Positions 45,412 to 47,426 of a DNA stretch of 64,000 bases are shown here, piece by piece. The notes below the pieces were generated by a model that made no database searches, had not been told where the DNA came from, and saw only the letters and a list, made by a program, of their open reading frames with translations. Each line of letters starts with the position of its first letter. Within the stretch, counting starts at the first letter, position 1. The translations under genes were made by a program, and so were the position numbers. The stretch is from Alicyclobacillus pomorum DSM 14955 (GTDB taxonomy: Bacteria > Bacillota > Bacilli > Alicyclobacillales > Alicyclobacillaceae). Location: assembly GCF_000472905.1 (NCBI RefSeq), contig NZ_AXAR01000001.1:1-64000 (forward strand). Direction: 5' to 3'.

Positions 45412-45436
45412 AAAGATCACAAACGATATCGAGGGG

Positions 45437-45467
45437 GCGGTCACCGTGAATAGGTGACCGCTTTTTT
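45437..45467 (+). terminator. Intrinsic terminator after the EamA exporter
   Basis: GCGGTCACC and GGTGACCGC form a 9-bp stem with a 7-nt loop followed by six T. Confidence 0.92.
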
Positions 45468-45703
45468 CGCAAGCTCTCACTCTATCTCGGGAGAACACAA
45501 ATTTTCAATTTGGAAGTAGACTATTCATTCGCGTGAGTCGTCTTGCCTTGTTTGCCGCGATGTTGGCGTTCGCTGATGTCTATCATACTATCTCCCAGCA
45601 TCCATCTGGACCATAAATTGTCTGTTCAAAGGGCGCTTTACGGTCTAATATGGAGTCAAGCATACGTAATTTATAGAATATTGGAATGGGGAGGACGATG
45701 GTC

Positions 45704-47212
45704 ATGAAACGAAAAATTCTGTTCGCGACGGGTAGCGTGCTGCCGAACAACGGAAGCGGCTACTTTCCCCAAGACGTCCGGCGCTTGTACAACATCCCCG
45801 CTGATTTGGACGGGGCAGGACAGACCATCGGAATTCTGGAATACTCCAACGGCTACAACATTCAAGACGCACACAGCTTCTGGGCTGCCCATGGCATTAC
45901 GCCACCCCAGGTGGAGTTTGTAAGTGTCGATGGCACCCGAAACGACGGAGGTACCAGTCCTGACGATGAAGAGGCTTCCTTAGATTTGCAGTGGGCGGGG
46001 GCCATCGCACCCAAGGCGAAACTCGTAGTCTATGAAGCCAATGGCGGGGATACGTACCAGACCTTCGCCGATGCCGTGCTTGCAACGTTGCGGTACGTCC
46101 TTCAAGATACAAAGAATCATCCGTCCGTGCTGTCCATCTCCTACGGTGACGCAGAGTTGAATATTGGACAACAGGCGATGCAGGAGATTGCCGACGTGAT
46201 TCAGCAACTCAGCGCCAAAGGCGTGACGGTGTGCATTTCTTCGGGGGATCAGGGCGCGTATGGCATGCATGACACCCGTGGCCCGAGGGTCCAGCATGCG
46301 GATGCCCCAGCCAGTGCACCGTACGCCGTGGCCGTGGGCGGAACGTCTCTGCAACCGGACGGAACGGAGTCCGCTTGGACGTACAACGGTCCGGACAACG
46401 GGGGGGCAACCGGTGGAGGATTCAGTTCCTTTTTCCCAAGACCGGATTACCAGGCGAGTCTGGGCGTCGTTTCGCGAGGCATTCCAGACGTGTCCTTGAA
46501 CGCAGATCCAGCCACAGGATACCAGATCATCTTCCAAGGACAGCCCGCAGTGGTAGGGGGAACGTCTGTGTCCAGTCCCGTTTTCGCCGCCATTGTCGCG
46601 CTCGCCAATCAACGGAGAGCGCAGCTTGGACTAGCCCCTGTGGCCAATCTGACGGAGAAGTTGTACAGTAACCCGAAGAGCGCTGGATACCGGGATATCA
46701 CCGTAGGCAACAATTCATTCAACGGCGTCAAAGGCTATGACGCGGTACCAGGCTGGGATGCTTGTACCGGATGGGGATCGCTCGATGCTACGGCGTTCAT
46801 CAATTTTTTGGCGACCGAGGACCGTGGGGGAGCTACATCCACGACACTCCAGCGTCAACATGCACCGGTTGTCCACCTCCAAGCGGTCATCAAGACGGTT
46901 GAATCGGACAAGGTGGAGCACGGTGTATCCCATCACCACTTGCTGATTCACCGCATCGAGGTCCTTCAAAGTGACGGCGTGGATCCCTCAAGCATCAAAC
47001 CCGAATTGTTTTGTGCCATCCGCTATGGCGATTCGTTGGGACTACCAGGGCCCATTCCCGGTTTGCAGGCGGGACAGGCGATTGAACTGCAGGGCGAGTA
47101 CATCGATGAGAACCACATTTACCCCACTATCGGCAATCCGGGCGATCCGGTTCTCCACTTCACCCACCATCCGGTCGGGTTTGTCGTTTACCAAGGCAAA
47201 CGCTACGAGTAA
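45704..47212 (+). CDS. Sedolisin (S53) serine-carboxyl protease, without prodomain
   Basis: About 502 residues. The mature sedolisin domain starts almost at residue 20 (YFPQDVRRLYNIP). The catalytic Glu90 and Asp94 lie in DDEEASLDLQWAGAIAP, the oxyanion Asp182 in SSGDQGAYG, and the nucleophile Ser288 in GGTSVSSPVFAA. The calcium-site region YRDITVGNN and GWDACTGWG follow. This closely tracks kumamolisin of acid-loving Bacilli, which works at low pH and high temperature. Unlike kumamolisin there is neither a signal peptide nor the N-terminal prodomain of roughly 190 residues. About 130 extra residues follow the protease domain and match nothing I know. GGGAGG lies 9 bases before the ATG. Confidence 0.93.
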   Translation: MKRKILFATGSVLPNNGSGYFPQDVRRLYNIPADLDGAGQTIGILEYSNGYNIQDAHSFWAAHGITPPQVEFVSVDGTRNDGGTSPDDEEASLDLQWAGAIAPKAKLVVYEANGGDTYQTFADAVLATLRYVLQDTKNHPSVLSISYGDAELNIGQQAMQEIADVIQQLSAKGVTVCISSGDQGAYGMHDTRGPRVQHADAPASAPYAVAVGGTSLQPDGTESAWTYNGPDNGGATGGGFSSFFPRPDYQASLGVVSRGIPDVSLNADPATGYQIIFQGQPAVVGGTSVSSPVFAAIVALANQRRAQLGLAPVANLTEKLYSNPKSAGYRDITVGNNSFNGVKGYDAVPGWDACTGWGSLDATAFINFLATEDRGGATSTTLQRQHAPVVHLQAVIKTVESDKVEHGVSHHHLLIHRIEVLQSDGVDPSSIKPELFCAIRYGDSLGLPGPIPGLQAGQAIELQGEYIDENHIYPTIGNPGDPVLHFTHHPVGFVVYQGKRYE

Positions 47213-47286
47213 CAAGCTCGGTCGAGTGCCATTACCGTTTCGTACGGTTGCAGGTACGAGGCATTCGTAGTGAATTGCTGACGAAG

Positions 47287-47316
47287 GGGCGCCAGTGTAG
47301 ACTGGTGCCCTTTTTG
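47287..47316 (+). terminator. Intrinsic terminator after the sedolisin gene
   Basis: GGGCGCCAGT and ACTGGTGCCC form a 10-bp stem (with one mismatch/G-T pair) around GTAG, followed by TTTTTG. Confidence 0.88.
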
Positions 47317-47426
47317 TGCGGTGCCGAGCAGTTGAAAAGGACATTGCAAGCAACCGTCGTGGCGTGTATTATTCAGTTATACTTAGTAAGTGTAACGTTA
47401 TAATTTTGCTGCGGGAGGGACGTCGC

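What the first reader, a model, noticed from the sequence alone, without database searches (positions are those of the whole stretch)
45704..47212. Kumamolisin-like protease with no prodomain or signal peptide and an unknown C-terminal domain
All catalytic and calcium-site residues of sedolisins are present, but the mature domain starts within 20 residues of the start codon. Known bacterial sedolisins are made as secreted precursors with a prodomain of roughly 190 residues. No upstream frame supplies one. About 130 extra C-terminal residues, with a His-rich start (HGVSHHHLL), match no domain I know and might replace the prodomain as chaperone or act in export.
Basis: partly seen in the sequence, partly recalled or inferred. 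Interest (0 to 1): 0.5.

Follow-up and report, generated by a model that had tools for sequence, protein, structure and literature searches.

The report
Prodomain-less sedolisin with OB-fold tail
This gene encodes an acid-protease relative that has lost both the export signal and the folding/safety segment its known relatives carry; it belongs to a conserved group of such shortened enzymes, and its odd tail is a small, optional binding module rather than a replacement for the missing segment.

Summary
Window 45704-47212 (+) encodes a 502-aa sedolisin (S53) whose mature domain begins about 20 residues after the start codon, with no prodomain and no evident signal peptide. It is not a frameshift: 22 further loci share the architecture and form one group with the window gene (SH-aLRT 99), mostly Alicyclobacillus plus two Salinisphaera. 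Catalytic residues are invariant in 23 of 23. The C-terminal ~117 residues are not a new domain. They are a divergent DUF3465 relative (profile match 99.9%, small alignments), probably an OB-fold, also found free-standing and beside or fused to other hydrolases. They do not replace the prodomain: 12 of 23 members lack both. Three 99%-complete genomes carry the gene but no recognisable sedolisin prodomain. Neighbouring Sulfobacillus-type sedolisins keep a divergent prodomain without evident signal peptide, as does a kumamolisin-type paralogue in this genome. So the signal was probably lost first and the prodomain later. Best reading: a cytosolic sedolisin, a counterpart of intracellular subtilisins, perhaps kept quiet by cytosolic pH. 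Location and regulation are inferred, not shown. New variant of a known kind.

The parts
45704..47212 (+). CDS: 502-aa prodomain-less sedolisin with C-terminal DUF3465-like domain
   Evidence: orthologues
45688..45694 (+). ribosome-binding-site-like GGGGAGG, 9 bases before ATG 45704
   Evidence: sequence; by eye, GGAGG-like stretches also lie near most of the 20 orthologue starts listed
45704..45745 (+). N-terminal head, residues 1-14 (MKRKILFATGSVLP), basic-hydrophobic; occupies the place of the prodomain linker
   Evidence: residues 1-10 disordered in model
45746..46822 (+). sedolisin (S53) catalytic domain, about residues 15-373
45971..45973 (+). catalytic Glu90 (kumamolisin E78)
   Evidence: kumamolisin numbering from PMC11593635 (table passage)
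45983..45985 (+). catalytic Asp94 (kumamolisin D82)
46247..46249 (+). oxyanion Asp182 (kumamolisin D164)
46565..46567 (+). nucleophile Ser288 (kumamolisin S278)
46859..47209 (+). C-terminal DUF3465-related domain, probably an OB-fold (residues 386-502)
45430..45469 (+). hairpin plus T-run, terminator-like, after the upstream EamA gene
   Evidence: z -4.7; the consensus scan listed none
47277..47322 (+). hairpin plus T-run, terminator-like, after the sedolisin gene
   Evidence: z -5.7; the consensus scan listed none

Best explanation
It is an active, single-gene sedolisin that stays in the cytosol, a sedolisin counterpart of the intracellular subtilisins. Shown here: within a kumamolisin-side lineage without evident signal peptides, the neighbouring Sulfobacillus-type enzymes keep a divergent prodomain, while this group has none and starts with a head of about 14-20 residues. 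The Ser-Glu-Asp site is invariant. The DUF3465/OB module is present in about half the members. Inferred: the catalytic domain folds without an intramolecular chaperone. Near-neutral cytosolic pH keeps the Glu/Asp-dependent enzyme nearly inactive, so the proton gradient of an acidophile does the inhibitory job of the prodomain, and the short head may lie in the active-site cleft as the pro-peptide of intracellular subtilisins does. The enzyme would act when the cytosol acidifies or the cell (or mother cell) lyses into acid. The OB module would tether it to a partner or substrate and is dispensable.
For: One group, SH-aLRT 99, of 23 prodomain-less genes. No prodomain in 22 of 22 loci plus the window, in the ORF or in any frame of the flanks held. 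Genomes G028, G035, G036 (99% complete) carry the gene and no PF09286 hit. 12 of 23 lack the tail. The heads show no leader-like hydrophobic segment by reading. Group I catalytic domains hold on average 3.4 Cys (21 of 23 counted) and Sulfobacillus-type ones 2.9 (21 of 23), against 0.7 in 30 prodomain-bearing ones; group I against the 29 of these with a hydrophobic leader, p 1.2e-9; this fits a reducing compartment. Basic-hydrophobic head in 17 of 23 against 21 of 187 control N-termini. dN/dS 0.07 for catalytic domain and 0.06 for tail in L062/L063; the three other pairs are saturated at synonymous sites in both domains. No conserved neighbour gene found in 23 loci. 16 of 22 records are named Alicyclobacillus, acidophiles as recalled. 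Precedent: in intracellular subtilisins a short pro-peptide across the active site replaces leader and prodomain (PMC6220982, passages).
Against: Location is not measured. Kumamolisin-type enzymes without signal peptide are, as recalled, recovered from culture fluid, so lack of a signal does not prove cytosolic residence. Five of 14 aligned fused orthologues (L013, L016-L019) have long Pro-rich linkers typical of extracellular enzymes. The Cys comparison is not corrected for kinship, and the leader-less but prodomain-bearing paralogue L029 has 6 Cys. The head is disordered in the model (pLDDT about 31), so cleft binding has no structural support; its motif was chosen after seeing the sequences, and 6 of 23 heads miss it. 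Two members are in Salinisphaera, which as recalled is not an acidophile. No stress or sporulation promoter was recognised (one chance-like match in 21 upstream regions).
Confidence: 0.5

Rival explanations
1. An extracellular acid protease released by lysis or a non-classical route, with the tail as a substrate- or surface-binding module. It folds directly in the acidic medium, so neither prodomain nor signal is needed.
For: Long Pro-rich linkers in 5 of 14 aligned fused orthologues; free-standing tail homologues include a lipoprotein-like (L025), a signal-peptide-like (L020) and a TM-anchored (L021) form; leader-less kumamolisin-type paralogue in the same genome.
Against: No evident targeting signal; 2-5 Cys per catalytic domain against 0 in 19 of 29 leader-bearing relatives; no conserved export partner next door.
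Confidence: 0.3
2. The C-terminal domain replaces the prodomain as intramolecular chaperone or inhibitor.
For: The tail is under purifying selection in the one pair that can be measured. It recurs with other hydrolases: overlapping a papain-family gene in L116, fused to trypsin plus endonuclease in L117.
Against: 12 of 23 group members, and 14 of 28 genes in 26 of 101 genomes (by open-frame length), lack both prodomain and tail.
Confidence: 0.08
3. A separately encoded prodomain acts in trans; the genome has a solitary 216-aa prodomain ORF without evident signal peptide (C36:33593-34006).
For: Solitary prodomain ORF found.
Against: It is the only full-length PF09286 match in so short an ORF in the list for 101 genomes; shorter fragments are listed in G045 and G021. 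G028, G035 and G036 hold the protease and no PF09286; a prodomain too divergent for PF09286 would be missed. The ORF's similarity to a paralogue runs past its stop, as in a decayed gene.
Confidence: 0.04
4. Frameshift, assembly error or pseudogene hiding a prodomain.
For: None found.
Against: No prodomain in the ORF of 22 other loci or in any frame of window and flanks; low dN/dS in the measurable pair; a hairpin after the upstream gene ends 234 bases before the start.
Confidence: 0.01

Closest known systems
Kumamolisin / kumamolisin-As (S53; PDB 1gt9, 1t1e, 1sio)
   Same: Catalytic fold (Z 47.7, rmsd 1.8 over 340, 38% identity), Ser-Glu-Asp site and calcium ligands.
   Different: No prodomain. 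W129 is Tyr in the window protein and in 34 of 34 rows examined (23 group I, 11 of 23 Sulfobacillus-type). Extra tail.
Sulfobacillus-type sedolisins (loci L081-L103)
   Same: 38-51% identical over the aligned part, no evident leader, NxGQGFFP-like junction in many, Tyr at the W129 site.
   Different: Nearly all keep a divergent prodomain (21 of 23 match the prodomain model, mostly in part). Exception: L088 has only about 35 residues before the domain.
Intracellular subtilisins (ISP, S8)
   Same: Related fold; leader and prodomain replaced by a short N-terminal extension (PMC6220982, passages).
   Different: Different catalytic triad and family; no LIPY/F motif here; inhibition by the head is not shown.
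DUF3465 (PF11948)
   Same: The tail aligns end to end with a set containing a bona fide member, including the H-[FW]-T-H-H motif near the C-terminus.
   Different: The window tail alone has no Pfam hit at E <= 1; function of DUF3465 is unknown.
Physarolisin II
   Same: Recalled as a sedolisin described without a usual prosegment.
   Different: Eukaryotic (Physarum); the paper asked for is not held.

Membership tests
Sedolisin / S53 peptidase | Ser-Glu-Asp site with oxyanion Asp in subtilisin fold | tested here: met
   E90, D94, D182, S288 invariant 23 of 23; fold Z 47.7
Sedolisin / S53 peptidase | calcium site near C-terminus of catalytic domain | tested here: met
   D331, I332, G350, D352 present in the window protein; D331 and D352 in 21 of 23 relatives each
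Sedolisin / S53 peptidase | N-terminal prodomain (PF09286) of the precursor | tested here: not met
   Usual but not catalytic; so filed as a prodomain-less variant, not as a standard member
Sedolisin / S53 peptidase | proteolytic activity with acidic optimum | not testable with these tools
   needs purified enzyme
Intracellular subtilisin (works like) | no leader, no prodomain, short N-terminal extension | tested here: met
   leader judged by hydropathy and reading only
Intracellular subtilisin (works like) | Asp-His-Ser triad, S8 family | tested here: not met
   Ser-Glu-Asp instead; so not a member
Intracellular subtilisin (works like) | extension lies across the active site and inhibits | tested here: inconclusive
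   residues 1-10 at pLDDT about 31
DUF3465 (PF11948) for the tail | profile similarity to the family | tested here: met
   hhalign 99.9% to a 7-row set, 92.5% to one bona fide member; but the window tail alone has no Pfam hit, 4 of 20 homologues do at E <= 1, best 5.4e-7
OB-fold for the tail | OB barrel topology | tested here: inconclusive
   model pLDDT 84; the best aligned rows are PriB, SSB and other OB-fold proteins by name, best Z 9.4, only a little above the level the tool calls common; Foldseek best E 0.03. Likely, not proven

The most novel reading that the evidence does not exclude
Sedolisins have evolved an intracellular branch that dispenses with the prodomain because the acidophile's own pH gradient is the safety catch: the enzyme is made mature, is nearly inactive at cytosolic pH, and is switched on by acidification or lysis. 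This would be a convergent counterpart of intracellular subtilisins, with an optional OB-fold (DUF3465) tether that also serves other signal-less hydrolases.
Probability: 0.3. Interest if true: 0.65.

Novelty: new variant of a known kind. Interest (0 to 1): 0.45.

Why it matters
The prodomain is regarded (recalled) as chaperone and inhibitor of sedolisins. A conserved branch that lacks it in nature allows a direct test of what the prodomain is needed for, and may offer acid-stable sedolisins that can be made without activation. It also gives DUF3465, a family of unknown function, a recurrent context beside hydrolases, several of them without evident signal peptides.

Tried and rejected
Hidden prodomain: searched with PF09286 in the own genome and in 101 relatives and with a home-made prodomain model in six frames; none near the gene. 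Trans-acting prodomain: rejected as a general rule because three 99%-complete genomes with the protease have no PF09286 match. Tail as prodomain substitute: rejected by tail-less members. Conserved partner gene: none found; the groups that I read were overlapping frames of the gene itself, ABC/MFS/regulator-type paralogues, or shared by close species. Promoters: one chance-like sigmaG/F match in one of 21 upstream regions. The tail against viral models: only weak, partly SSB-like matches; a PDB profile search with the tail found nothing at E <= 1. The tail's tree mixes fused and free forms and is poorly resolved, so one fusion event is neither shown nor excluded. Wider spread: of 398 genomes of the phylum only the query genome has the tail; DUF3465 in 3 of 299 genomes of the class; no match of the L116 tail in the phage collection.

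Corrected on rechecking: my note calls the Sulfobacillus-type prodomain 'reduced'. Their N-termini show a divergent prodomain that starts near the start codon and is about as long as usual, matched only partly by my model.

Rows dropped: the G041 match (L022; two stops, E 8e-4) was left out of alignment A1. L028 and L046 were left out of the prodomain model, and L044 too from the tree. L104-L111 (more distant sedolisins) were left out of the tree. In one search two of 23 group I rows and two of 23 Sulfobacillus-type rows were not counted because the simple motif used to cut the domain did not match. Alignment A3 held 11 of the 23 Sulfobacillus-type loci. The head motif was chosen after seeing the sequences.

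Literature: ten searches gave no title or abstract start on prodomain-less bacterial sedolisins in their listings; most subscription journals are not held. Papers opened, passages only: PMC6220982, PMC11294657, PMC11593635, PMC9549277.

Full report
WHAT IS THERE. The ORF is real and starts most likely at ATG 45704, nine bases after GGGGAGG; an in-frame ATG at 45686 precedes that site. It encodes 502 residues. It seems to stand alone: the EamA-type gene upstream is followed by a hairpin with a T-run at 45430-45469, and another such hairpin follows the gene at 47277-47322 (z -4.7 and -5.7; the simple terminator scan listed none). Neighbours are an EcsC-family gene, the EamA transporter, a PadR-type regulator, an ORF without Pfam hit, a DUF1775 gene and an ABC ATPase on the other strand. 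No conserved neighbour gene was found in 23 loci with flanks of up to 6 kb.

THE CATALYTIC DOMAIN. It matches kumamolisin at E 1.4e-59. The AlphaFold model (mean pLDDT 82) superposes on 1gt9 with Z 47.7, rmsd 1.8 over 340 residues. E46, E90, D94, D182 and S288 correspond to kumamolisin E32, E78, D82, D164 and S278; the kumamolisin residues are tabulated in PMC11593635 (passages). All five are invariant in 23 of 23 prodomain-less relatives. Kumamolisin W129 is Tyr in all 34 rows examined (23 of group I, 11 of 23 Sulfobacillus-type). The one pair close enough to measure in both domains shows strong purifying selection (L062/L063: dN/dS 0.07 catalytic, 0.06 tail).

NO PRODOMAIN, AND NOT AN ERROR. 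A scan of the genome collection (84,980 species) with the fused orthologues as query used two short peptide patterns of the catalytic domain, so other members may be missed; it returned 53 loci. Twenty-two (L059-L080) share the architecture: 16 records named Alicyclobacillus, one Alicyclobacillaceae, three unassigned Bacilli/Bacillota MAGs and two Salinisphaera. The open frame before the match is 5 to 109 residues, and likely starts lie about 20-30 residues before the domain. A prodomain model built from 31 relatives found nothing in these 22 ORFs or the window ORF, while it hit 21 of 23 Sulfobacillus-type ORFs. It found nothing in any six-frame ORF of at least 40 aa in their flanks or in the whole window. 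In the tree (76 rows, quick method, no bootstrap) the 23 form one group, SH-aLRT 99. The Sulfobacillus-type rows stand beside it, not resolved as one group, then the kumamolisin-type paralogue of the same genome. Several long branches make deeper joins uncertain. With L088, prodomain-less but outside the group, presence of the prodomain changes twice on this tree. In the relatives search 26 of 101 genomes hold 28 such genes, 14 with and 14 without the long C-terminal extension (by open-frame length). PF09286 occurs in 45 of the same 101 genomes. G028, G035 and G036, each 99% complete, hold the protease and no PF09286; G014 does too but is only 62% complete.

SIGNAL PEPTIDES. In this genome one paralogue (L002/L029, kumamolisin-type, 558 aa from its likely start, E 2.4e-193 to pro-kumamolisin 1t1e) has a prodomain but no hydrophobic leader, and two others (L003, L004) have leader-like N-termini (by eye). 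The 23 Sulfobacillus-type loci show no evident leader by reading either: their likely starts run almost directly into the prodomain, or into the domain in L088, and hydrophobic stretches there lie in its first strand (L102 and L098 are the least clear). So loss of the signal probably preceded loss of the prodomain. One in-frame hydrophobic stretch upstream of the likely start occurs in the A. suci-type genes (L060, L012; also L010) and is probably untranslated.

THE TAIL. The window tail alone hits no Pfam family. Of 20 homologues, 4 hit DUF3465, best E 5.4e-7. A profile of the 14 fused tails aligns with a seven-row set containing a bona fide Vibrio DUF3465 (212 bits) at 99.9%, and with that one sequence at 92.5%. 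Modelled alone (pLDDT 84) it resembles OB-fold proteins: PriB Z 9.4, SSB, editosome proteins; Foldseek E-values are weak (0.03). The His-rich HGVSHHHLL is part of a conserved domain core. Free-standing copies include a lipoprotein-like (L025), a signal-peptide-like (L020) and a TM-anchored (L021) form. Others sit in what reads like prophage lysis cassettes (L023, L024; by eye), overlap the end of a papain-family gene without evident signal peptide (L116), or close an 857-aa trypsin plus DNA/RNA endonuclease protein in Stanieria with a matrixin gene next (L117). L006 and the Rhizobium copies L119 and L120 have no such partner that I recognised. The tail is optional for the sedolisin: 11 of 23 have it, with four changes on the tree, three of them forced by well-supported branches.

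HOW IT PROBABLY WORKS. Inference: the lineage lost its leader, then, in this group, its prodomain. What remains in front of the domain is a short head with a basic-hydrophobic start in 17 of 23 (21 of 187 control N-termini; motif chosen after the fact). Intracellular subtilisins show the same kind of change: leader and prodomain are replaced by a pro-peptide that binds across the active site (PMC6220982, passages). Cytosolic residence is supported by Cys content: mean 3.4 in group I catalytic domains against 0.7 in 30 prodomain-bearing ones (group I against the 29 leader-bearing members, p 1.2e-9 without correction for kinship). Sedolisins work in acid (kumamolisin-As best at pH 4.0; PMC11294657, passages). 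A near-neutral cytosol would hold the enzyme down, and acidification or lysis would release it. That step is not shown. The head is disordered in the model, so the analogy to the subtilisin pro-peptide remains a hypothesis. Pro-rich linkers in five fused orthologues, recalled recovery of signal-less kumamolisin from culture fluid, and the Salinisphaera members speak against or leave open the cytosolic reading.

VERDICT. The finding is genuine and more general than reported: a conserved group of prodomain-less sedolisins, with an optional tail related to a known family. It is a new variant of a known kind. Searches listed no paper on such bacterial enzymes; physarolisin II is recalled as a possible precedent but could not be read.

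Noticed in passing
G000 C36:33593-34006 (L028 1354-2001): Solitary sedolisin prodomain ORF of 216 aa without evident signal peptide; similarity to a paralogue runs past its stop, so probably a decayed gene. The only full-length solitary prodomain listed among 101 genomes; fragments are listed in G045 and G021.
   Followed up: partly
L117 281-3720 (Stanieria plasmid): Trypsin-like domain, DNA/RNA non-specific endonuclease and DUF3465-like domain in one protein without evident signal peptide, followed by a matrixin gene.
   Followed up: partly
L116 3159-4381 (IMG/VR contig): Papain-family gene overlapping a free-standing DUF3465-like gene of the same type as the tail.
   Followed up: partly
L023 and L024 (genome G091): DUF3465-like genes between NlpC/P60-like, holin-like and amidase/glycosidase-like genes, reading like prophage lysis cassettes (by eye).
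   Followed up: no
L078 and L079: Members of the prodomain-less group in Salinisphaera (Gammaproteobacteria), 61-62% identical to the window protein: likely horizontal transfer.
   Followed up: no
L088 4687-5808: A second prodomain-less sedolisin outside the group, with a tail that looks like a copper-amine-oxidase N-terminal type domain (by eye).
   Followed up: no
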